Source: a virus
IMG/VR virus record: IMGVR_UViG_3300045944_000044
Coordinates: 1-25,427 of that record
Length of the DNA stretch: 25,427 bases
Reading direction: 5' to 3' (one strand)
In this document: one piece after another, positions 12,760-22,463 of the stretch
Layout: every line of letters begins with the position of its first letter
Position numbering within the stretch: position 1 is the first letter of the stretch
Translations under genes and position numbers: made by a program
The notes under the pieces: model-generated
Seen by the model: the letters and a program-made list of their open reading frames with translations, nothing else
Database searches by the model: none
Told to the model about the DNA's origin: nothing

Positions 12760-13295
12760 GAATCGTCCTCCTGCGCTTGATGATCGGATTCGCCGCGCTG
12801 TTCGGCCGCGGTGTCGGCGAGTTGGTCGGCGGCTTGGCCGGCGCGGGCGATGAACAGCTCGCGGATCGCGGATCGCACGTCGGGGTCGAGTTCCTCGATC
12901 TGCTTGACGTGGGCGGCGGCTTCCCGGCGCGCGTCGCGGGCGCGGTCCTTCGGGGTGTCGTCCTTGATGACGACCCACTCGACGGCATCCACGTACCGCC
13001 CGGCGGCGTCGGGCAGCCGGCGCGCCCGGATGAACGCGCCGGCGCCGGTGGCGGGGTCGAACTGCGGATAGGTGGTGTCCACGTCCACGCCGGCCAGCGC
13101 GCCGTGAAACATCAGCAGCTGCAGATGATCCTCGGGCAGACCCAGTGACCAGCCCTGGATGCCGACCGCGTCGCGGAAGGCCTCCACGAGCCGCTGCTGA
13201 CGCGCGGTGATCACGTCCTGCTCGGCCTGCGTGAACCGCCGCTCGTACGGGAACGACGGAAAAACCTTGCCCTTGTTGCGGTTTCGTCTGCTCAT
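12756..13295 (-). CDS. Helical tail-region protein
   Basis: A 179-residue protein, ATG at 13295 overlapping the HNH gene's stop (ATGA). The N-terminus is basic (MSRRNRNKGKVFPSFPYERR), followed by a mixed region (FTQAEQDVITARQQRLVEAF, LPEDHLQLLMFHGALAGVDV) and a strongly helical, charged C-terminal third (RDARREAAAHVKQIEELDPD, then IRELFIARAGQAADQLADTA). Small basic-to-helical proteins of this type lie between the Gp37-like protein and later minor tail proteins in related phages, but I know of no assigned function. It probably followed the Gp37-like gene directly before the HNH gene was inserted. Confidence 0.8.
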   Translation of the reverse strand: MSRRNRNKGKVFPSFPYERRFTQAEQDVITARQQRLVEAFRDAVGIQGWSLGLPEDHLQLLMFHGALAGVDVDTTYPQFDPATGAGAFIRARRLPDAAGRYVDAVEWVVIKDDTPKDRARDARREAAAHVKQIEELDPDVRSAIRELFIARAGQAADQLADTAAEQRGESDHQAQEDDS

Positions 13296-13936
13296 GCGGC
13301 TGCGCTCCGAAACCGTGCGCGCTGAATCACGCACGACTTGCAGTTCCGGCCGCCACCAGCCCGCCAGTAGATGTTGTCGGGGGTGAATTCGTGACCGTTC
13401 TTGCAGTGCGTCTTATCCTTGTTGCCCTTCCCATTCGGCACGTACGAGCTGGGCCGCAACTTCCAGCAGGCGCGGCAGTCGCGGCCGCCGTCGCCGCGGG
13501 CGTATGTGTTCTCGGGTGTGAATTCGTGGCCCCGGACGCAATGGGTCTTCATCCAGTTCTGGTTGCCGATCCCGTTGCGTGCCATGTCCCGCTTGTTGGC
13601 CAGGCTGGTGTCCCACCGCAGATTCGACAGGTGGTTATTGCCCGGATTGTCATCCCAGTGGCACGCCTCCATCCCCTTGGGGCACGGGCCGACGAACGCG
13701 AGCAGCACCAGGCGATGCACACGCTCAGCGTGACCTTCCCCGGCCAACTGCAAGTTGACCCAGCGGCGGCGGTACTTGTCGGTCGCTTGCCGCAATATCC
13801 GCTCACGGTATGAGCGTGATTGGCCACACGGCAGCGCAACAGTCCGGGCATCTGATCGAACCCGGCCTGAATCGGACACGGAATAGCAGCCCTCCCATCC
13901 CGGGATCGGCCGCCATGTCTCGTGTGTGATTTCCAT
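13292..13936 (-). CDS. NUMOD4/HNH homing-type endonuclease with zinc knuckles
   Basis: A 214-residue free-standing endonuclease inserted between minor tail genes. Residues 7-30 are a NUMOD4 motif (WRPIPGWEGCYSVSDSGRVR); residues 73-110 form the HNH_3-type core (VHRLVLLAF, then ACHWDDNPGNNHLSNLRW) with H93, N101 and the NNHLSNLRW signature. The C-terminus carries two copies of a Cys/His knuckle: CVRGHEFTPENTY ... CRAC and CKNGHEFTPDNIY ... CKSC, likely zinc-binding DNA contacts. ATG at 13936 has AGGGAG a few bases upstream, in a 9-base gap after the Gp37-like gene; its 3' end overlaps the next gene (ATGA). Such enzymes nick or cut cognate sites lacking the gene and spread by recombination. It is not needed for virion structure. 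Confidence 0.92.
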   Translation of the reverse strand: MEITHETWRPIPGWEGCYSVSDSGRVRSDARTVALPCGQSRSYRERILRQATDKYRRRWVNLQLAGEGHAERVHRLVLLAFVGPCPKGMEACHWDDNPGNNHLSNLRWDTSLANKRDMARNGIGNQNWMKTHCVRGHEFTPENTYARGDGGRDCRACWKLRPSSYVPNGKGNKDKTHCKNGHEFTPDNIYWRAGGGRNCKSCVIQRARFRSAAA

Positions 13937-13945
13937 TGTCTCCCT

Positions 13946-15676
13946 TTAAAAAAGTGACCCGCTACCCGCGAGCATGCCGGCGAATGAGGCGACGTTGCCG
14001 ATGGTGCGGAACCCGCGGGCGATGGGGTCCTCTTCGCGGGTGTCGTCGCCGAAGCTGACCGTGGGCCGCCCGCTCGAACTGCGGTCGCCTTCGGCTCGGA
14101 CGGCCATGATCTGGTCGGTGTAGACCACGCCGCGGATCTCGGCGGACACGCGGTCGCCGAGCCGGAAGTCTTCACCGAGCACGAACGGTTGGCCGTCGCC
14201 GACGTCGAACTTCATCGAGCGGTAGGCCTTCATCGCGTAGTCGCCGGACGCCAGGTCCTGGATCGCGTTGATCACGTAGGCGGTGCCGTGGCCCTGGTGG
14301 AAGTATTCGCGGAACGCGTACGGTCCGGCTTTGGCTGAGCGGATCGGGTTGACGAACCTCTGGAACGCGAGGAACACGTCATCGAGGTATCCCTGGTAGA
14401 GGTTGTCGAGGCCTTCGGCGCCGGGTGTGGCGTAGGTGGGGCCGATGCCGGTGGTGATGGTCTGACCGAGTTGAGAGAGCCCATAGCGGATGGCCCAGGT
14501 GATGGCGGCGTTCAGCCATGCCGGTGACCGCCCGCCGACGACGATGTCGGTGCCCTGCTGTTTGTGGATCACCCGCCGCGACTTGCGGACGTTGCCGTAG
14601 CCGACGTCGCGGTACACGAACGGCGGCGGGGCCGGGGCGACTATCAGCAGTTTGCGGAAGAACGGGTCGGTGTCGCCGTCGCGGTCGGCGTCCAGCGGGA
14701 TGAGGGTTTCGGTGATCAGGTCGTCGAGGGTCGCGGCGAACAGGTTGATGGCGCCGTCGGCCAGGGTGCCCGTCGGGCCGGTGACCCCGGATTTGTCCTC
14801 GAAACTCAGGATCACGCATGCCCTTGGGGGGCAGAGGATCGCGCCGAGCACATCGCCGAACACCTCGGTGTAGGGGGGCGGGTCACCGGGCAGCCACGTG
14901 TAGGCGCGGCAGATGACGCCGGCGTCCTTCATCGCCGGCGACAGGACGGTGTGGGCGTCCTTCCAGCGCGATCCGATGGTGCACCAGCGGGACTGGTCGA
15001 GGATCGGGTTGACGGGCATGACCTGCACCGGCCAGTTCAGCGGCGACAGGTTCTCCAGCAACGACGTGGGGTCGAACAGGTTGCGCGGCAACGGGAACCA
15101 GCCGTTGAGGCTGTGGAGGCGGAAAAGGTTGATCCACACCGAGGTGGCGCAGGTGGTGACCGTGGGGCCACCCCACAGGAACATGCGCGGCAGCTGCACC
15201 TCCATGGGAAAAATGGGGTTGGCCGCCAGATAGATACCTTTGAGGTGGCGCCGGTTGGAGATGCAGTTCAGGGTCGTGTGCGACGTTTCGCCGGGGTTGT
15301 CCTCGTCGTCGATGGTGAGGACCTTCCCGCCCCAGCGGGACCGCCAGTCGTGCGGTTTGTCGGGGTCGGGGTCGATGGTGATGTGGACGTCTTCGTCGTC
15401 GCCGATCTGGTAGGTGACGATCTCGCGGAGCCAGTCGTTGGCCTGCCCGGAGAACGTGACGTGGGCTTCGCCGTCGTCGGTGGCCAGTTCCTCCCAATCC
15501 CACCGGTCCAGGTTCTCCAGGCGGGCGACGAACTGCATGTCCTTGTCCCACAGGCGGATCAGGGGTTGCTTGGTGCGCCGGTTCATGTACGCCCAGCGGC
15601 GTTCCAGCAGGTGCATCTGCAGCTCGGCGGTGAACTGCCCGTCGAGGGTTTTCGGGTCCAGGGTGGCGGTGCTCAC
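13946..15676 (-). CDS. Gp37-like minor tail protein (tail-associated)
   Basis: A 576-residue protein. GTG at 15676 is preferred (GTGA overlap with the upstream stop). The segment KQPLIRLWDKDMQFVARLEN (about residues 36-55), followed by WDWEELATDDGEAHVTFSGQ, is the hallmark of the siphovirus ReqiPepy6 Gp37-like family, whose members form the baseplate/Tal-like part of the tail tip. Downstream beta-rich parts (DDEDVHITIDPDPDKPHDWR, GDGQPFVLGEDFRLGDRV) and a C-terminal small-residue tail (GSGSLF) fit. Position directly after the Dit-like gene agrees with a Dit-Tal pair. The gene ends in a run of six T before TAA, just upstream of the HNH gene. Confidence 0.88.
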   Translation of the reverse strand: MSTATLDPKTLDGQFTAELQMHLLERRWAYMNRRTKQPLIRLWDKDMQFVARLENLDRWDWEELATDDGEAHVTFSGQANDWLREIVTYQIGDDEDVHITIDPDPDKPHDWRSRWGGKVLTIDDEDNPGETSHTTLNCISNRRHLKGIYLAANPIFPMEVQLPRMFLWGGPTVTTCATSVWINLFRLHSLNGWFPLPRNLFDPTSLLENLSPLNWPVQVMPVNPILDQSRWCTIGSRWKDAHTVLSPAMKDAGVICRAYTWLPGDPPPYTEVFGDVLGAILCPPRACVILSFEDKSGVTGPTGTLADGAINLFAATLDDLITETLIPLDADRDGDTDPFFRKLLIVAPAPPPFVYRDVGYGNVRKSRRVIHKQQGTDIVVGGRSPAWLNAAITWAIRYGLSQLGQTITTGIGPTYATPGAEGLDNLYQGYLDDVFLAFQRFVNPIRSAKAGPYAFREYFHQGHGTAYVINAIQDLASGDYAMKAYRSMKFDVGDGQPFVLGEDFRLGDRVSAEIRGVVYTDQIMAVRAEGDRSSSGRPTVSFGDDTREEDPIARGFRTIGNVASFAGMLAGSGSLF

Positions 15677-16770
15677 GCGAGCGCGCTTTCGAAGCGCTGC
15701 GGGCACTGCGCCCAGATCCGGCCGCCGGGGCGGCTGTGCGAAACGGGCAGCGTCGCGACGGATCTCGGTGGGATCGGCACCGAGAATCCCTGGCCTTTGA
15801 ACCGCTGCAGCAACGGCAAGCCCGAATCGCCGTACTCGCCGAGCAGCCAGTCGAGCAGCTCGGCGTTGCGGACGAACTTCTTGACGATGTTGTCGACGGG
15901 ATCTTTGGTGCTGATCGCGATCCGGTGCGTCGGGTCGGTGTCGATGATGGCGTGCTCACCGTCGGCGAGTTCGGGGACGTCGATCATCACGGCGTCACGG
16001 CTGTAGGTGAACGAGCCCGACACGGCGTCGGCGAACGGTGTCCCGAACAGGCCGGCCACGCGCGGCCAGTCGTCGAGCAGGTTGCGTTCCCCGGTGACGA
16101 AACCGTTGGGCCCGTCGCCCAATCGCACCTTGCCGGGTGCGGTGACGAAGAAGATCGGCCACTGCGGTTCGGTGCTGCGGTTGGCGATCCGGATGAACCC
16201 CGCGTGCGGCCCGTACAGGTACGGCGACGACACGAACGGCGCCGGGGCGGTGTCGGGGCGATGCCAGCGCGGTTCCCCGTCGACGGCCAGGACCACGTCG
16301 TGCAGGGAGACGCCCTGCAGGGCGGGGTCGTCGGGCAGCGCGCACTTGGGTGCCTCGAGGAGCTGGGCGGGCACCCACAGTTGCCCGAACCGGCGGGTGG
16401 TCAGCGCGAACCATCCGGTGGCGTCGCGGCGGCAGCCGCGCCAGAACCGGGATTCGACGTCGTACCAGCCCAGCGGCGCCCAGGAACGCAGGCCGAGGGT
16501 GAAGCTGATTTCGCGGCGCGAATCCACTGTGCGTTCGAATCGTGGTGGCCCGTAGGCCGGTTTGGTCCAGATGCCTTCGAAGGGGACGTGCACGATTCCG
16601 TCGATGGGGCCGGAGATGAACGCGCCTGCGCTGCCGCCCATCTGCCCGGCCAGCGGCCAGAACGCGCCGTCGGAGCCGATCCAGGTGATGGTGACGCCTT
16701 CACCGCGCGCGGCCGGCGACAGTTCGCTCCACTTGACGGTGCGCCGGCCGGTGATGATCGTTTCGGCCAT
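15673..16770 (-). CDS. Distal-tail (Dit-like) minor tail protein
   Basis: A 365-residue protein; its ATG at 16770 shares one base with the tape measure stop (TGATG). Position immediately after the tape measure gene is that of Dit, which caps the tail tube and forms the baseplate hub. The sequence is beta-rich with many aromatic residues (ITWIGSDGAFWPLAG, REISFTLGLRSWAPLGWYDV, PQWPIFFVTAPGKVRLGDGP, SFTYSRDAVMIDVPELADGE), consistent with an N-terminal Dit-like barrel plus an inserted galectin/jelly-roll-like domain, as in larger actinophage Dits. No signal peptide or catalytic motif. Family assignment rests mainly on gene order and length. Confidence 0.85.
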   Translation of the reverse strand: MAETIITGRRTVKWSELSPAARGEGVTITWIGSDGAFWPLAGQMGGSAGAFISGPIDGIVHVPFEGIWTKPAYGPPRFERTVDSRREISFTLGLRSWAPLGWYDVESRFWRGCRRDATGWFALTTRRFGQLWVPAQLLEAPKCALPDDPALQGVSLHDVVLAVDGEPRWHRPDTAPAPFVSSPYLYGPHAGFIRIANRSTEPQWPIFFVTAPGKVRLGDGPNGFVTGERNLLDDWPRVAGLFGTPFADAVSGSFTYSRDAVMIDVPELADGEHAIIDTDPTHRIAISTKDPVDNIVKKFVRNAELLDWLLGEYGDSGLPLLQRFKGQGFSVPIPPRSVATLPVSHSRPGGRIWAQCPQRFESALA

Positions 16771-19700
16771 CAGCCGACGCCGATCTGCGCGGGTGCCGAA
16801 TAGGTGCCCAGCCGTGGTGTTTTCAGGATGGTGCGCCGCGTCCGGTCGGCGATGGACTGCTCATCGCCCTGCGGGTTGTTGATGGTGACGTGCGTGGACT
16901 GGTCCACCGGGCCGGGCGCGGCGCCGCCGCCGGTGTGGACGGTGGGGGCCGACGGGTCTGTCGGGCTGGTCGGCAGCAGCGAGCTGACCCCGGGGATCAT
17001 CCCGAACGGCAGGCCGCTGGTGCCGGCGCCGGTGTCGGCCATCCCGGAGAACGGATCGGTTGCACCCGCCGTGGAGGTTTGCGCCCCCTGGTCGGCGGCC
17101 GCGCCGGCGACGTTCTTCGCGAACCCCAACACCGCGCCCAACGATTTCACCGCGGGCAGATCGGAAATGTCGGGAAACAGCGAACCGTCCAGGCCGAACG
17201 TTTCCTTCATGAACGAGCCGAAAATGTTGCCCAGTTCACTGAATTCGCCTGACCCGCCGCTCTTGCCGGCTTTCTGCTTGTCGGCTTGCTTCGCCTCGGT
17301 GAAGGTGCCCTTCTTGGCTTCGTCGGCGTCGGCGCGGGCATCCTCGGCTTCGCGGCGCGCCTTGACGGCATCGGCCTGGGCTTTGCGGACCGCTTCCTGC
17401 GCGGACAACCGCTGCGATTCCGACGCGTCGGCGTCGAGTTCGTTGAGCCGGGCCTGCGCAAGCGCAACCGCCGTGTCAGCGTCAGCGATGCGGTCCATCG
17501 CGTCGGCGGCGCGCTGATCGGCCTCACGCACCGCTTTCGGGTCCGCCCGCCAAAATCCCTGATTGCCGTGCTCGTCGACACCCGGTGTCCCGGGCCCGTA
17601 CGCGGGGTTCGTGTTGCGGGACAAGTCGATCGGCGAACTCGCCGACGAACTCAGACCGTCAAGTGCCGCCGGGAAACCCGCCCCGCCCGGCATGGGGATC
17701 GACAGACGTTGCCGGGTGTGGACGTGGTTCATGTGATCGGCCCAGTCGTCGCGGTAGTAGCCGCCCGGCTGTGTCACCACATCGCCGCCTGGTGTCAGGC
17801 CGAGCACGTTGCGGGTGTTCGGGTTCTGCCAGATAACCTGTTCGAGGCCTTGAGGTTTGGTTTGCGTCAGGTACTCGGCGAACCGCTGCATGTCGGCGAC
17901 CGACCCCGACCAGTCGATGCCCTGGTTCTGCCCGGACCCTTCCTGGTGGCCCGGATAGGTGGACGGCTTGAGGTTGAACCCCGCAGCGACCTGGTTGACC
18001 CAATCGGGGAACGTGACCCCACCACCGCCGTAGCCGCCGCTGTCAGACCCCGCCGCCAACCCGTAGGGCACCTGGCCCAGCGCCGGCGCTGAGGCACCGG
18101 GCGTGCCGGTCAGGCCGGACAGCAGCGCCGCGGCGTTCTCGCGTCCCGGCAGACCGGCGCCCCAGTCGGAACCAGACGGATTGCGGTGCAGTATGCGCGC
18201 CGCGACGACGGCCTGCTCCTGGGGCGAGGCTTCGCCCGCGGTCGGCGCGAAACTGGTGCCGCCGTTGGCCGCCCACGTGCTCTTGGCGATCTGAAAGAGT
18301 CCGCTGGCTTCGTTGCCGCCGGTGTTCGCGTCGATCACCTGCTGCGGGACGTCGGGCCGGCCGCTTGATTCCCGCTCGATGAGCGCGGCCCACGCCGCGT
18401 CCGGCGACGTCCATGTGCCGCCGGCCCCCCGCGTCAACGGCACCGTTGCCGATGCTGCGGCTGCCGCAGCCGGAGCGGCGGTCGCGGGGAAATCGAACCA
18501 GCCGCGCTGCCCGGCTGGGCGGGTCGCTTCCAGCTTGTCCCGCAACGCATCCAGGTTGTGGCCGCTGGTCTTGGCTTGCTCACCGAGATCGTGGAGCTGT
18601 TCGCGGGCCGCGTCGAAGTCCAGGCGGTCCGAAGCTTCGTTGAGCTTCTTGAGTCCCTCGCCGAGGGAAAACATCTCCTCGGCCTGCTCACGCAGCTGCC
18701 GCGCGGTTTCGTGATCACCACGAATGTCGGCCTTCCACGCCTCGAACTTGTACAGCGCGCCGAGCGCGTCACCGATCGGGGCGATGATTCCCCCGATCGC
18801 GCCGGCGGCGTCGCCGAGTGCTTTGACCATCCACTCGGCGGCGGTGATCGACGCGTCACCGAGGGTGACGAAGAAGTCGATGACCTCGCCGCGGTGGGCC
18901 GACACCCAATCAGCGAGCGCGCTCAGCTGCACGCCGACCAAGTTGAAAAGCGTTGTACCCAAAGGCTCCAACGCGATCTTGGCTTCGTTCTGCAGCAGCG
19001 GCCAGCGCTCCGACCAGTCGGAGGTGTCGGCGGCCAGCTGGTTGATGTCCACCCCGGTGGACTGCAACGAAGCCGACAGGGTCTGCAGATCCAGTGCGCC
19101 GCGCTGGATCGCGTCGAGGAACTGCCCGCCCTTGGCTCCGAAATATTTGTTCGTCAGGGTCTGCGCGTCGGTGATGTTGCCCGCGTCGATCAGGCCCTTG
19201 ATCTGCCCGACGACTTCCCGTAGGCCGGCCGCCCCGGTTTTGCCTTCCTTGGCCAGCGTGGCCAGGCCTTTGTTCAGGCCGCCGCTGATCATCTTCTCGG
19301 CGTTCAGGCCCGCCGCGTCGAGTTGGGTGATGAGAGCGGCGGACTCGCCGAACCCGAACCCGAACTGCCGCAGCGCGGCCCCGCCCTTGTTCATCGACGC
19401 GACGAGCTCGTTGATCCCGATACCGGTCGCCTGTTGAACACCGGCCAGCGAATTCAGTGCGGCTGCTTGGTCTTTCGCGTCGACACCGAACCCGTGGAAC
19501 GCCTTGCCCAGCTCGCGGACGTTGACCGCTTCGCCGGTCATCCGGTTCCAGTTCGCGATGCGGCTGGTGACGTCGTCGAACGCCGACCCGGTCAGGTGCA
19601 GGTTGCGCGTGACGTCGACGGCCACATCGCCTATGTCGGCGAACGACGACGCCACAGTGGTTGTCCCGAGACGCTCGATCGAATCGACGAGGCCTTCGAG

Positions 19701-20327
19701 CTGCGCACCCGAGGCGCCCGTCGAGATCTGCAACTTGTCCCGCAGATCGTCGAACTGCGCGCCCAGGTCGTAGAGTTCACGGGCCGCTTTGATCGCGCCC
19801 GCGCCCAGGGCCGCCAGGGCGGTGACCGCAGCGCCGGCGGCGACACCGGCCATCGCGCCCATCGACGCACCGAGGCCGGCCATCTTGCCGTCCAGATCGC
19901 CGGCGCCGTCGCCGAGACGTTTCTGCGCCGACAGCAGCGACTTGTGGCCATCGTCGGCTTCCCGCGACGCGCGCGCGGAATCCCTGCGCGCCTTGGCCAG
20001 ACGCTCCTCGGCGGCCACTATCTGATCGTTCTTACCGCCGGCGCGGGCCTTGGCGAGTTTCTCCTCCTCGGTGCGGATCTTGCCGAGCGCGTCAGCGGCC
20101 TTGTCACGCAACTTCGCGTAGGCGTCGGCGGCCTTCTTGACCTCTGCCTCAGTCGATTTCAGGCCGTCGCCGAGCCCTTTGCCGAGATCCTTCCCGGATC
20201 GTTTACCGATGTCGCCGAGGCGGCCGAGCGCCTTGCCGACACCGTCATTGACCTGCTTATCGATGCCCTCAAACGACACCAGAACGGGCATCGCGTAGTA
20301 GCCGAGGTCACCCTTACCGGCGGACAT
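16770..20327 (-). CDS. Tape measure protein with Rpf-like and M15-like domains
   Basis: A 1185-residue protein setting tail length and passing through the tube during DNA entry. ATG 20327 has AGGTGA upstream. Residues 50-145 are coiled coil (EEEKLAKARAGG); about 150-180 hydrophobic (GVAAGAAVTALAALGAGAIK). The middle to about 540 is helical. Residues 644-725 are a resuscitation-promoting-factor/transglycosylase-like domain: IERESSGRPDV with E653 as expected catalytic acid, ASGLFQIAKSTWAANGGTSF and EQAVVAARIL. Residues 790-875 carry a second, metallopeptidase-like module: GHQEGSGQNQGIDWSG (H794, D805) and DHMNHVHTRQ (H868, H870), like M15/LAS peptidases. Another coiled coil lies at about 950-1035. 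Rpf motifs in mycobacteriophage tape measures (for example TM4) help infection of stationary cells. Confidence 0.93.
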   Translation of the reverse strand: MSAGKGDLGYYAMPVLVSFEGIDKQVNDGVGKALGRLGDIGKRSGKDLGKGLGDGLKSTEAEVKKAADAYAKLRDKAADALGKIRTEEEKLAKARAGGKNDQIVAAEERLAKARRDSARASREADDGHKSLLSAQKRLGDGAGDLDGKMAGLGASMGAMAGVAAGAAVTALAALGAGAIKAARELYDLGAQFDDLRDKLQISTGASGAQLEGLVDSIERLGTTTVASSFADIGDVAVDVTRNLHLTGSAFDDVTSRIANWNRMTGEAVNVRELGKAFHGFGVDAKDQAAALNSLAGVQQATGIGINELVASMNKGGAALRQFGFGFGESAALITQLDAAGLNAEKMISGGLNKGLATLAKEGKTGAAGLREVVGQIKGLIDAGNITDAQTLTNKYFGAKGGQFLDAIQRGALDLQTLSASLQSTGVDINQLAADTSDWSERWPLLQNEAKIALEPLGTTLFNLVGVQLSALADWVSAHRGEVIDFFVTLGDASITAAEWMVKALGDAAGAIGGIIAPIGDALGALYKFEAWKADIRGDHETARQLREQAEEMFSLGEGLKKLNEASDRLDFDAAREQLHDLGEQAKTSGHNLDALRDKLEATRPAGQRGWFDFPATAAPAAAAAASATVPLTRGAGGTWTSPDAAWAALIERESSGRPDVPQQVIDANTGGNEASGLFQIAKSTWAANGGTSFAPTAGEASPQEQAVVAARILHRNPSGSDWGAGLPGRENAAALLSGLTGTPGASAPALGQVPYGLAAGSDSGGYGGGGVTFPDWVNQVAAGFNLKPSTYPGHQEGSGQNQGIDWSGSVADMQRFAEYLTQTKPQGLEQVIWQNPNTRNVLGLTPGGDVVTQPGGYYRDDWADHMNHVHTRQRLSIPMPGGAGFPAALDGLSSSASSPIDLSRNTNPAYGPGTPGVDEHGNQGFWRADPKAVREADQRAADAMDRIADADTAVALAQARLNELDADASESQRLSAQEAVRKAQADAVKARREAEDARADADEAKKGTFTEAKQADKQKAGKSGGSGEFSELGNIFGSFMKETFGLDGSLFPDISDLPAVKSLGAVLGFAKNVAGAAADQGAQTSTAGATDPFSGMADTGAGTSGLPFGMIPGVSSLLPTSPTDPSAPTVHTGGGAAPGPVDQSTHVTINNPQGDEQSIADRTRRTILKTPRLGTYSAPAQIGVG

Positions 20328-20544
20328 GGATCACCTGCCGCGGCGCGTCCTCGTCGACGGTGACGTGCGCGGGCCGGCGGTCGCGCCGGCGTCGCAGTGT
20401 GGCGGCGACGTCAGCGGCGAGGCGGCGCGCCCACCGCCACCACGGCTCGACCCGCTCGTTGACACGCTGTGTCCCGATGAGGGTGAAGTCCTTGTCCCAC
20501 AACCGCACCAGGGCGTGGGTGCGGTAGCGGCGCCAGTGGATCAT
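20314..20544 (-). CDS. 76-residue basic protein with LWDKD motif
   Basis: ATG at 20544 follows the chaperone-like gene's stop by seven bases; the end overlaps the tape measure start by 14 bases. The N-terminal third (RTHALVRLWDKDFTLIGTQR) matches the signature of the Gp37-like tail protein (KQPLIRLWDKDMQFVARLEN), including an identical 14-base stretch at 20488-20501 and 15539-15552. The rest is very basic and helical (WWRWARRLAADVAATLRRRR). It occupies the position where many phages have the downstream part of a frameshifted tail assembly chaperone, but it lies in the +1 frame with no slippery site, so it is probably a separate small gene. Function unknown. Confidence 0.7.
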   Translation of the reverse strand: MIHWRRYRTHALVRLWDKDFTLIGTQRVNERVEPWWRWARRLAADVAATLRRRRDRRPAHVTVDEDAPRQVIHVRR

Positions 20545-20551
20545 CAGCGGC

Positions 20552-20848
20552 TCACAGGATGCATTCGGTGTGCAGCTGTTCGACGGCCGGCAACGCGAAC
20601 GCGTTGAAGTCGTCGAGGGTGGCGGCGACCGTTTTGAGCCGTTTCCAGTCGTCGGCGCCGAGGAGTTCATTGAATGCGCGGGGCAGGTTTCCGCGCCCGA
20701 ACTGCAGCACCGCCTCGACGGGCCAGCGGCCGCGGCGTTTGGGCACCTCGAACGTCAGGCCACGAAAACCCAGGGTGACGGTTTCGTCGTCGGGATCGAC
20801 GGCCGCGTCGTCGTCGGTTTGCGTGTCAGTGGTTTTCGTCTTGCTCAT
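20552..20848 (-). CDS. Tail assembly chaperone-like protein (G-type)
   Basis: A 98-residue protein from ATG 20848, which shares a base with the upstream stop; GTG 20851 is the alternative. An acidic N-terminal tail (TDTQTDDDAAVDPDDE) precedes a compact domain: LGFRGLTFEVPKRRGRWPVE, FGRGNLPRAFNELLGADDWK and LDDFNAFALPAVEQL. The order hairpin, W-P, LLGxxxW, then a final helix is typical of actinophage tail assembly chaperones (lambda G role), which coat the tape measure protein and start tube polymerisation. The adjacent 239-residue protein has the same opening motif. No XXXYYYZ slippery sequence is visible near the end. Confidence 0.75.
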   Translation of the reverse strand: MSKTKTTDTQTDDDAAVDPDDETVTLGFRGLTFEVPKRRGRWPVEAVLQFGRGNLPRAFNELLGADDWKRLKTVAATLDDFNAFALPAVEQLHTECIL

Positions 20849-21567
20849 CACGCCTGCCCTAGTTCGCGTCGCCGGTTGGCTTCGGCTTCGGCCAGCGCCG
20901 CGGCGACCGGATTGCCTGGTCGGGATGCGTATTCGGCTTCCCTTCGCCTCAACCTAGCTTCATGTTCGGCTTGGGCCTGCACAGCTTCGATCGCCCTGGT
21001 GAGCTCGTCGGGTTTGAGCGGTCGACCCGGGTACACCTTCCCGGTGAGGGCCTGATAGACGGCGGCGGCGATGTACATCAGTTCGGTCCATTGTTCGTTG
21101 CCGCCGTTGACCGCCCGGGCGAGGGCGGAGGTGGCGGGCAGCCGCCGGATATAGGTCCAGATGCGCCGCAACGTCAGTGTGCCGGTGAACCGGTCGGCGT
21201 AATCGACACCCCAGAACCGTTTCAGGTCGGATGCGACGTCGTCTTCGTAGTCGTCGAGCAGCCACAGCAGTGTCTGCACGCCGCCGAACCAACTGTCCGG
21301 CGCGGCCGGGGTTTCCGGCAGTCGGGCCACCCCGGCGGCGGCGGCCATCGCGTCGGAAAGCTCACGGGCGTCGTCGAGCAGTGGGCGTGGCCCCAGTGCG
21401 GTGTCGGCCTGCTCGCCGAGCAGCGCCAGCGTCGCGGCCAATGGGTGGGTGCGCACCAGGGTCGCCGGCCACGCTGCGATGTCCAGCGGGATGGTGACCG
21501 CAACGCCCCGGAAATCGAACGTTGCCTCGTGCGCGCCTTCGGCTTCCAGGCGTGCCGCGTGGCTCAT
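20848..21567 (-). CDS. Tail assembly chaperone-like protein with G-like and T-like parts
   Basis: A 239-residue protein, ATG at 21567 overlapping the previous stop (ATGA). The opening ATFDFRGVAVTIPLDIAAWP resembles the first motif of the 98-residue neighbour (LGFRGLTFEVPKRRGRWP), suggesting a shared G-like fold. The central part (LLWLLDDYEDDVASDLKRFW, GVDYADRFTGTLTLRRIWTY, IRRLPATSALARAVNGGNEQ) has the pattern of the T-type or DUF5361-like domain of actinophage chaperones (rFWGvDyxDxxxGxLtLRRlxxxIrxLPxxSALARA). The C-terminal 50 residues are a charged helix. Because one gene carries both parts with its own start, no frameshift is needed to make a GT-type product. Assignment is by pattern and by position between tube and tape measure genes. 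Confidence 0.72.
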   Translation of the reverse strand: MSHAARLEAEGAHEATFDFRGVAVTIPLDIAAWPATLVRTHPLAATLALLGEQADTALGPRPLLDDARELSDAMAAAAGVARLPETPAAPDSWFGGVQTLLWLLDDYEDDVASDLKRFWGVDYADRFTGTLTLRRIWTYIRRLPATSALARAVNGGNEQWTELMYIAAAVYQALTGKVYPGRPLKPDELTRAIEAVQAQAEHEARLRRREAEYASRPGNPVAAALAEAEANRRRELGQA

Positions 21568-21911: not shown

Positions 21912-22463
21912 TTAGGCGGCGCTCTGTTGCTGGACCTTGTAGAGCTCCATGGTCGGTGAGGGGAACGCCGTCACGGTCACCTCGCGCGGCGGTGCGTCGC
22001 CCTCGGCGTCCTTGATGGTCGGCACCCAGAACTTGCCCCGTTCCGCCGAGATCGCGCGGTGCTTGCCGCCGGTGGCGGTGCGCTTCTCCAGCGCATAGTG
22101 CGCGTAGAGCGGCTTGGGCACCACGATGGACGTCGCTGTGGACCCCGGCCACATGATCTTCTGCATCACCGCGTTGTCCTCCAGCGCGGACACCTTGGTT
22201 TCCAGCACGAAGTCCTTCACCGGGGCGGCGACGACACCGTAACCCCACGCGGTGATCTTCTTCTCGTCCCAGTTGCGGTTCTGCTCAAGACCCGATTCAC
22301 CGACCAGCAGGCCCAGGAAACCCCATTTCTCGTCGCCGGTGTCGAAAGGGTCGGTGATGGCTTCGGGCAGGTCGGCCTCGGTGGGCGGCGTGCTGCCCAG
22401 CCACAGCAGGACGTCGGCCTCCGACCAGAGCCGGGACTGCACGTTCGCGGGTATGCCGGCCAT
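21912..22463 (-). CDS. Major tail (tube) protein
   Basis: A 183-residue protein with a strong ribosome site (GAGGAGAACCACA before the ATG at 22463), as expected for a major virion protein. It forms the hexameric rings of the tail tube. Sequence features are a polar N-terminus (IPANVQSRLWSEADVLLWLG), then beta-rich stretches (KKITAWGYGVVAAPVKDFVL, NAVMQKIMWPGSTATSIVVP, REVTVTAFPSPTMELYKV) typical of actinophage tube proteins with the siphophage tail-tube fold. Gene order (after the terminator gene, before chaperone and tape measure genes) fully agrees. No odd features. Confidence 0.9.
   Translation of the reverse strand: MAGIPANVQSRLWSEADVLLWLGSTPPTEADLPEAITDPFDTGDEKWGFLGLLVGESGLEQNRNWDEKKITAWGYGVVAAPVKDFVLETKVSALEDNAVMQKIMWPGSTATSIVVPKPLYAHYALEKRTATGGKHRAISAERGKFWVPTIKDAEGDAPPREVTVTAFPSPTMELYKVQQQSAA

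What the first reader, a model, noticed from the sequence alone, without database searches (positions are those of the whole stretch)
20314..20544. Small gene carrying the LWDKD signature of the Gp37-like tail protein
RTHALVRLWDKDFTLIGTQR in this 76-residue protein mirrors KQPLIRLWDKDMQFVARLEN in the 576-residue tail protein about 5 kb away, with a 14-base exact match (20488-20501 and 15539-15552). It may be a duplicated N-terminal fragment now acting as a decoy or chaperone for assembly around the tape measure protein, or a shared binding motif.
Basis: seen in the sequence. Interest (0 to 1): 0.52.

Follow-up and report, generated by a model that had tools for sequence, protein, structure and literature searches.

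The report
Small hub-hairpin protein beside tape measure
A mycobacterial virus carries a tiny gene whose protein copies a short, strongly conserved piece of the virus's tail-tip hub and adds a new helix, and the same piece turns up inside an unexplained protein that slows host growth in other mycobacterial viruses, so it looks like a reusable part whose job can now be tested.

Summary
In detail: 20314-20544 (minus strand) is a real gene between a tail-chaperone gene and the tape measure gene, and its LWDKD stretch matches the Gp37-like protein. The 14-base DNA match is ordinary (42 such repeats in the window), but the protein similarity is real: about 24-28 residues, found in both directions by profile searches. 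The Gp37-like protein is the baseplate hub, and the shared piece is the first beta-hairpin of its core. Stand-alone orthologs sit in the same slot in phiT46-1-type prophages and one other lineage; the gene is under purifying selection, was gained once and lost once, and is not a conserved frameshift product. Beyond the hairpin it has its own Trp/Arg-rich helix. The same hairpin-helix module ends phrog_2822 proteins of cluster K mycobacteriophages (right arm, fused to a major-tail-protein fragment) and is a whole 39-50 aa protein in Nadezda and Typha. All three cluster K homologues that I matched to published screens inhibit M. smegmatis growth (Waterfoul gp81, Adephagia gp86, Hammy gp84). Best reading: a hub-mimicking accessory factor of tail-tip assembly; a host-directed inhibitor is the main rival. 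The mechanism is inferred, not shown.

The parts
20314..20544 (-). Small gene, 76 aa: beta-hairpin plus Trp/Arg-rich helix (the 'hub-hairpin' gene)
   Evidence: (GC3 0.92 in this frame; dN 0.33, dS 0.85 against L010 over 58 codons)
20446..20526 (-). Predicted beta-hairpin, residues 7-33 (strands 7-16 and 22-33)
   Evidence: AlphaFold2 on 3 sequences, mean pLDDT 63.9, low confidence
20488..20502 (-). LWDKD core, residues 15-19
   Evidence: W16 and D17 invariant in 5 orthologs
20389..20442 (-). Predicted amphipathic helix, residues 35-52, next to and including most of the EPWxxWxRR motif (residues 33-41)
20552..20851 (-). 99-aa G-like tail assembly chaperone gene
   Evidence: phrog_10551 E 1.2e-13
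20848..21567 (-). 239-aa tail assembly chaperone gene
   Evidence: phrog_15731 E 2.7e-83
16770..20327 (-). Tape measure protein gene; its start overlaps the end of the small gene by 14 bases
   Evidence: phrog_9228 E 1e-133; coordinates
15673..16770 (-). Minor tail protein, in the position of the distal tail protein
   Evidence: phrog_106 E 2.3e-57; distal-tail role inferred from gene order
13946..15706 (-). Gp37-like protein = baseplate hub protein
   Evidence: PF14594 E 6.2e-34; PDB 9d93 gp25 E 2.3e-28; Foldseek 9d93 E 1.9e-28, 8zdo E 6.8e-24
15518..15562 (-). Hub hairpin homologous to the small protein, residues 49-63 (LWDKD at 15539-15553)
   Evidence: P48 L49 R51 W53 D54 K55 invariant in 23 hubs; strands 49-53 and 59-63 predicted

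Best explanation
SHOWN: this is a genuine, selected small gene, one of a group of stand-alone copies of a roughly 45-residue module. The module is a beta-hairpin related by sequence profile to the first hairpin of the baseplate hub's core fold, followed by a basic Trp-rich helix. The gene lies in a tightly packed late tail cassette (chaperone - small gene - tape measure) with overlapping or nearly touching starts and stops. INFERRED: the protein is a diffusible hub mimic that works in tail-tip assembly. Its hairpin takes the place of the hub's hairpin at a neighbour of the hub (distal tail protein ring, tape measure C-terminus or another hub chain) and its helix holds it there or on the chaperone-tape-measure complex, so the tip is held back from closing or clumping until the real hub arrives. 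It is accessory, because close relatives with nearly the same hub do without it.
For: Position and coupling: the small gene follows the G-like chaperone gene and overlaps the tape measure start by 14 bases; in L010, L009 and phiT46-1 its GTG start overlaps the chaperone stop. Similarity to the hub hairpin in both directions (hhalign 96.7%, 28 columns, single comparison; 52 of 59 hub ORFs hit at E<=1 by a 15-sequence module profile built without hubs). The same strand-turn-strand is predicted for both proteins. Purifying selection: dN 0.33, dS 0.85 between window and L010; the two shifted frames show the reverse. Vertical inheritance: carriers are 6 of 41 tips in one hub clade, 2 parsimony changes. 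Literature: the hub's core beta fold binds the distal tail ring, and the tape measure C-terminus inserts into the hub lumen in phage Douge (PMC13033339, section 11; PMC13252515, section 6).
Against: No interaction or phenotype is known for this protein. Phages with a 74%-identical hub (JustASigh) lack the gene, and window-like tape measures (L082, 49% identical) sit directly behind the chaperone without it, so it is not required. The module also occurs in right-arm regions of cluster K, Nadezda and Typha genomes, away from the tail genes, which does not suggest a tail-only role. The predicted fold has no significant PDB match and low confidence.
Confidence: 0.4

Rival explanations
1. Host-directed inhibitor: the hairpin-helix module acts on the bacterium (envelope or an essential protein); the window gene is a late-expressed stand-alone version of the growth inhibitors of cluster K phages.
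For: All three homologues that I could match to published overexpression screens inhibit M. smegmatis: Waterfoul gp81 +++ (more than 3 logs; one of 6 such genes among 92 tested, PMC9339283 section 11), Adephagia gp86 small colonies, ratio 0.05 (PMC11373665, passages), Hammy gp84 score 1 (PMC10700055, passages); the genes were matched by sequence. The helix is basic and amphipathic (Eisenberg moment 0.51-0.58, net charge of the protein +8 to +10).
Against: The cluster K proteins also carry a hydrophobic helix (max Kyte-Doolittle average 1.1-2.05 over 19 residues; in Waterfoul gp81 the maximum, 1.09, lies elsewhere, near the N-terminus) that the window protein lacks, so toxicity may not come from the module. 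Many phage proteins are toxic when overexpressed, including tail proteins in the same Waterfoul table. No overexpression result for a stand-alone module was seen.
Confidence: 0.22
2. Minor virion component: a few copies sit in the finished tail tip or tube lumen and stabilise the hub or tape measure.
For: Late tail operon position and similarity to a ring-forming virion protein.
Against: Close relatives have the same tail gene set without it. In the passages I read of the two mycobacteriophage baseplate papers, no stand-alone copy of this hairpin was named; those phages are not known to carry it.
Confidence: 0.15
3. Weapon against other phages: the module and the tail-tube/hub chimera of cluster K poison tail assembly of a competing phage.
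For: The cluster K protein joins a major-tail-protein fragment to the hub hairpin (phrog_117 E 5.4e-6; phmmer against Cain major tail protein down to 9.4e-8), both tail-derived.
Against: CrimD gp87 on a plasmid gave no immunity to any cluster K phage (PMC3203893, passages). No PADLOC model matches. The window gene lies among late tail genes.
Confidence: 0.1
4. C-terminal part of a frameshifted chaperone: the frame stays open upstream to 20754, so the small protein could be the tail of a chaperone fusion.
For: Open frame of 146 codons; joined (frameshift) chaperone genes are annotated in several relatives.
Against: The frame relative to the chaperone differs: +1 in the window, -1 in L010, L009 and phiT46-1. 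GC by codon position of the upstream extension (0.46/0.84/0.71) is unlike coding frames here.
Confidence: 0.05

Closest known systems
phrog_2822 (cluster K right-arm proteins: Thyatira gp82 and Rando14 gp81 by hmmscan; Waterfoul gp81, Adephagia gp86, Hammy gp84 and Pixie gp85 matched by sequence or by the module profile)
   Same: Same C-terminal module: W-R-R start, [VIL]-[RT]-[LFT]-W-[DST] hairpin and E-x-x-x-x-W-[LA]-x-R helix
   Different: Those carry about 100-190 extra residues (major-tail-protein fragment in most, and a hydrophobic stretch) and lie outside the tail operon; the window protein is the module plus a short C-terminal tail, inside it
Mycobacteriophage Nadezda Nad_00090 / Typha gp95
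   Same: Stand-alone 39 and 50 aa proteins that consist of the module
   Different: Right-arm location next to unrelated genes, not beside the tape measure gene
Gp37-like / baseplate hub protein (PF14594; Bxb1 gp25, PDB 9d93; Douge hub, PDB 8zdo)
   Same: First hairpin of the core fold, 24-28 residues
   Different: The remaining 500 or so hub residues are absent, and the helix after the hairpin is not in the hub
Rem711 gp20 (67 aa, phrog_31419)
   Same: Stand-alone protein with a similar hairpin, RIRFWDRDFNLVADN, between major tail and chaperone genes
   Different: No EPWxxWxRR helix; different position; profile support weaker (E 0.005-0.029)

Membership tests
phrog_2822 C-terminal module | Profile match over hairpin and helix | tested here: met
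   Window E 8.8e-6, residues 3-50 to 158-204; L010 2.9e-4; L009 6.3e-5; phiT46-1 2.1e-6
phrog_2822 C-terminal module | N-terminal major-tail-protein fragment and hydrophobic middle stretch | tested here: not met
   Window protein is 76 aa and has neither, so it is filed as a stand-alone relative of the module, not as a full phrog_2822 member
Baseplate hub (PF14594) | Pfam family match over the hub domains | tested here: not met
   0 Pfam families for the small protein at E<=1
Baseplate hub (PF14594) | First hairpin of the core fold with R-x-W-D | tested here: met
Frameshifted tail assembly chaperone (GT type) | Conserved relative frame across orthologs | tested here: not met
   +1 in the window, -1 in L010, L009 and phiT46-1
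Cluster K growth inhibitors | Inhibits M. smegmatis on expression | not testable with these tools
   Known only for three cluster K homologues from papers
Known anti-phage defence protein | Match to a PADLOC model | tested here: not met
   0 families for 6 proteins

The most novel reading that the evidence does not exclude
Mycobacterial phages have turned the first hairpin of their own baseplate hub into a portable interaction part, hub hairpin plus amphipathic helix. It is used alone in the tail operon and, joined to a tail-tube fragment, as a growth-inhibiting right-arm protein of cluster K phages, so that one surface that normally docks the hub also controls tail assembly and disturbs the host or rival phages.
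Probability: 0.2. Interest if true: 0.75.

Novelty: new variant of a known kind. Interest (0 to 1): 0.52.

Why it matters
It links a protein family with no known function, highly toxic to mycobacteria in one published screen, to a structurally characterised tail-tip protein. That gives a structural handle on this family and makes a direct test possible: do hub, stand-alone module and cluster K inhibitor bind the same partner? If the module controls tail-tip assembly, it would be a tail chaperone made from a piece of the machine it serves.

Tried and rejected
The 14-base match as evidence of duplication: rejected (42 such repeats in the window). Programmed frameshift fusion: rejected on frame and composition. 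Close homologues by tblastn or back-translated patterns with the window protein alone: none in phages or viral contigs; with the alignment none in genome contigs; the L010 protein found none in phages and only its own two contigs in viral contigs, as did the alignment. The chaperone as bait in viral contigs found nothing.

The small-gene profile over 401 genomes gave 9 matches: 1 ortholog, 4 hub ORFs and 4 others that are not hubs (identity checked). Dropped rows and limits: 13 labels named in the script as near-duplicate or redundant, and hubs in which the motif search failed or that were too short, were left out of the 41-tip tree. Of 209 phage records matching Thyatira gp82, 60 were listed; all 60 matches reach the module region, the other 149 were not examined. 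Remnants of the gene in 11 gaps of non-carriers: none convincing. phrog_2822 in 397 Mycobacteriales genomes: only two matches, in the major-tail-like half. Foldseek of the small model: best E 0.47. NCBIfam gave only chance matches; Rfam gave none in the window. A papers search for five gene and family names found only PMC3203893; a search for tail-mimic or tail-assembly inhibitors gave 4 papers by listing, none opened for this; no wider novelty search was made.

Full report
WHAT IS THERE. The window is an IMG/VR virus record of 25,427 bases. Its tail genes run on the minus strand: major tail protein (21912-22463), a 109-aa protein, a 239-aa tail assembly chaperone (20848-21567), a 99-aa G-like chaperone (20552-20851), the small gene (20314-20544), tape measure (16770-20327), a minor tail protein (15673-16770) and the Gp37-like protein (13946-15706). 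The nearest annotated relatives by the Gp37-like protein are Mycobacterium abscessus phages and prophages of the phiT46-1 type (about 76% identity), JustASigh (74%), Rem711 (70%) and Giles (71%).

THE OBSERVATION. Coordinates, the 76-aa protein and the 14-mer are correct. The 14-mer is not evidence in itself: 42 maximal direct repeats of at least 14 bases occur in the window. The protein similarity beats most shuffles (19 of 5000 reach it), and at family level it is clear. The profile of five small-gene orthologs hits 46 of 51 hub ORFs at E<=1 and 9 of 12,002 other ORFs, with 0 reversed ORFs. These loci were mostly fetched because they hold a hub and several are near-duplicates, so the numbers are not independent. 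In a set of 401 genomes drawn without regard to hubs the same profile gave 9 matches: one ortholog, four hub ORFs and four non-hubs. In the other direction, a profile of 23 hub N-termini has the small genes as its best non-hub hits (window 7.5e-5, phiT46-1 6e-4, L010 0.014, L009 0.088), with Rem711 gp20 (0.029) among them and one stray ORF (0.43). hhalign gives 96.7% over 28 columns for this single comparison.

THE HUB. The Gp37-like protein matches PF14594, the Bxb1 hub gp25 in PDB 9d93 (phmmer 2.3e-28, which aligns plirlwdkdmqfvarl with plirlwdgdyklrgql), and by fold 9d93 and the Douge baseplate 8zdo. In 23 hubs, P48 L49 R51 W53 D54 K55 are invariant. The motif is the first hairpin (strands 49-53 and 59-63) of the core beta fold in the model (mean pLDDT 61.6 overall, but block means of 76-90 over residues 41-160). 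In Douge the hub has an N-helix (1-41) and core beta fold (42-147 plus 487-560), joins the distal tail ring, and receives the tape measure C-terminus in its lumen (PMC13033339, section 11 read). Domains I and III form the trimeric ring that meets the distal tail proteins (PMC13252515, preprint, section 6 read). The small protein is predicted as strand 7-16, turn, strand 22-33, helix 35-52, with the turn at the same DKD, at low confidence (mean pLDDT 63.9, 3 sequences), and has no significant PDB match (best E 0.47).

ORTHOLOGS AND EVOLUTION. Stand-alone orthologs lie in the same slot in phiT46-1 (gp16, hypothetical), prophi58-1 (gp64), L009 and the matching genome of Mycobacteroides franklinii (L048, L058), and L010/L011. 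Invariant residues outside the hairpin core (W4 R5 R6, E33 P34 W35, W38, R40 R41) show a conserved second half. Window and L010 differ by dN 0.33 and dS 0.85 over 58 codons, while the shifted frames show the reverse pattern. On a hub tree of 41 tips (near-duplicates removed), carriers are 6 tips in one clade with 2 parsimony changes; one gain and one loss in the JustASigh-L012-L047 branch is my reading. In relatives L079, L082 and L084 the G-like gene is followed directly by the tape measure start, so insertion of the small gene is the simpler reading. Giles, JustASigh and Rem711 lack it at this place, and no remnant was found in 11 gaps.

EXPRESSION. In L010, L009 and phiT46-1 the gene begins with a GTG that overlaps the chaperone stop; in the window an ATG lies 7 bases after it, in a different frame. 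Termination-reinitiation therefore fits better than frameshifting (inference). The upstream extension of the frame does not have a coding composition.

THE MODULE ELSEWHERE. phrog_2822 matches all four small genes tested across hairpin and helix. Members were found through weak tblastn hits: Thyatira gp82 (E 1.7e-69) and Rando14 gp81 (6.9e-67). In these, residues 40-101 resemble a major tail protein (phrog_117 5.4e-6 for Thyatira; phmmer against the Cain major tail protein down to 9.4e-8), a hydrophobic stretch follows in most, and the C-terminal 50 residues are the module. The major-tail likeness is weak or absent in LaterM, Hammy, Adephagia and Pixie, so the module is the better conserved end. 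The 60 listed of 209 matching phage records are all Mycobacterium phages with the match at about 51-58 kb in genomes of 57-64 kb, and all 60 reach the module. In Cain, Validus, Peanam, LaterM, Adephagia and Hammy the gene lies one or two genes after an annotated RtcB-like RNA ligase. In Nadezda and Typha the module is a whole protein of 39 or 50 aa. A module profile from 15 sequences without hubs hits 52 of 59 hub ORFs at E<=1 (best 1.8e-5); three of 12,065 reversed ORFs reach E<=1 (best 0.051). Pixie gp85 reads RGPLIRLWDAEYNLV where the window hub reads KQPLIRLWDKDMQFV.

WHAT IS KNOWN OF RELATIVES. [quoted passage not shown] CrimD gp87 on a plasmid gave no immunity (PMC3203893, passages). Overexpression screens scored Waterfoul gp81 +++ (PMC9339283, section 11), Adephagia gp86 as small colonies with ratio 0.05 and no informative structural match (PMC11373665, passages) and Hammy gp84 as 1 (PMC10700055, passages). 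I matched these genes to the module by sequence. In the Waterfoul table a 590-aa minor tail protein, gp21, is ++; by gene order this is probably the hub (inference), and its Hammy homologue gp22 was not toxic.

HOW IT MOST LIKELY WORKS. A conserved hairpin like that of the hub, expressed next to the chaperones and the tape measure, most simply binds what the hub hairpin binds. I therefore favour an accessory hub mimic in tail-tip assembly (0.4). The cluster K data make a host-directed inhibitor the main rival (0.22), weakened because those proteins carry other parts and because overexpression toxicity is common among phage genes. Every mechanistic step beyond sequence similarity, position and selection is inference.

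NOVELTY. The stand-alone gene and the link hub hairpin - small gene - cluster K inhibitor were not found under the five names searched; wider literature was not searched. I rate it a new variant of a known kind.

Noticed in passing
20552-21567: Chaperone genes look rearranged: the 239-aa chaperone carries a G-like domain and a separate 99-aa G-like gene follows it, next to the tape measure; phrog_5813 hits both, and the G-like profile also hits the long chaperone in L010, L011, L015, L016 and L017. In Gordonia-type relatives G comes first and GT is annotated as a joined CDS. A separate G gene might make the usual frameshift unnecessary.
   Followed up: partly
L005:386-589: Rem711 gp20 (also in L019 and L035, and in NM241) is another stand-alone small protein with a hub-like hairpin, RIRFWDRDFNLVADN, between major tail and chaperone genes, without the helix.
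   Followed up: partly
L085:1473-2784; L088:2800-4099: In cluster K phages the module gene overlaps the start of a second gene (phrog_2493 in Thyatira and Rando14); in Waterfoul the next gene, gp82, is also mildly toxic. Possible functional pair.
   Followed up: no
16770-20327: The tape measure protein carries a transglycosylase-like domain (PF06737, E 2.5e-10, residues 643-716).
   Followed up: no
13292-13936: 214-aa ORF directly after the hub gene that reads like an HNH homing endonuclease (from the sequence and recall; not tested).
   Followed up: no
L007:2072-2230: Giles has a different 52-aa, very basic, probably helical protein (gp19) in the same slot between the G-like gene and the tape measure.
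   Followed up: no
L028:2024-2776 and similar: Major tail proteins of Gordonia-type relatives begin with NVKLWDGADVLI, superficially like the hub LWD hairpin.
   Followed up: no
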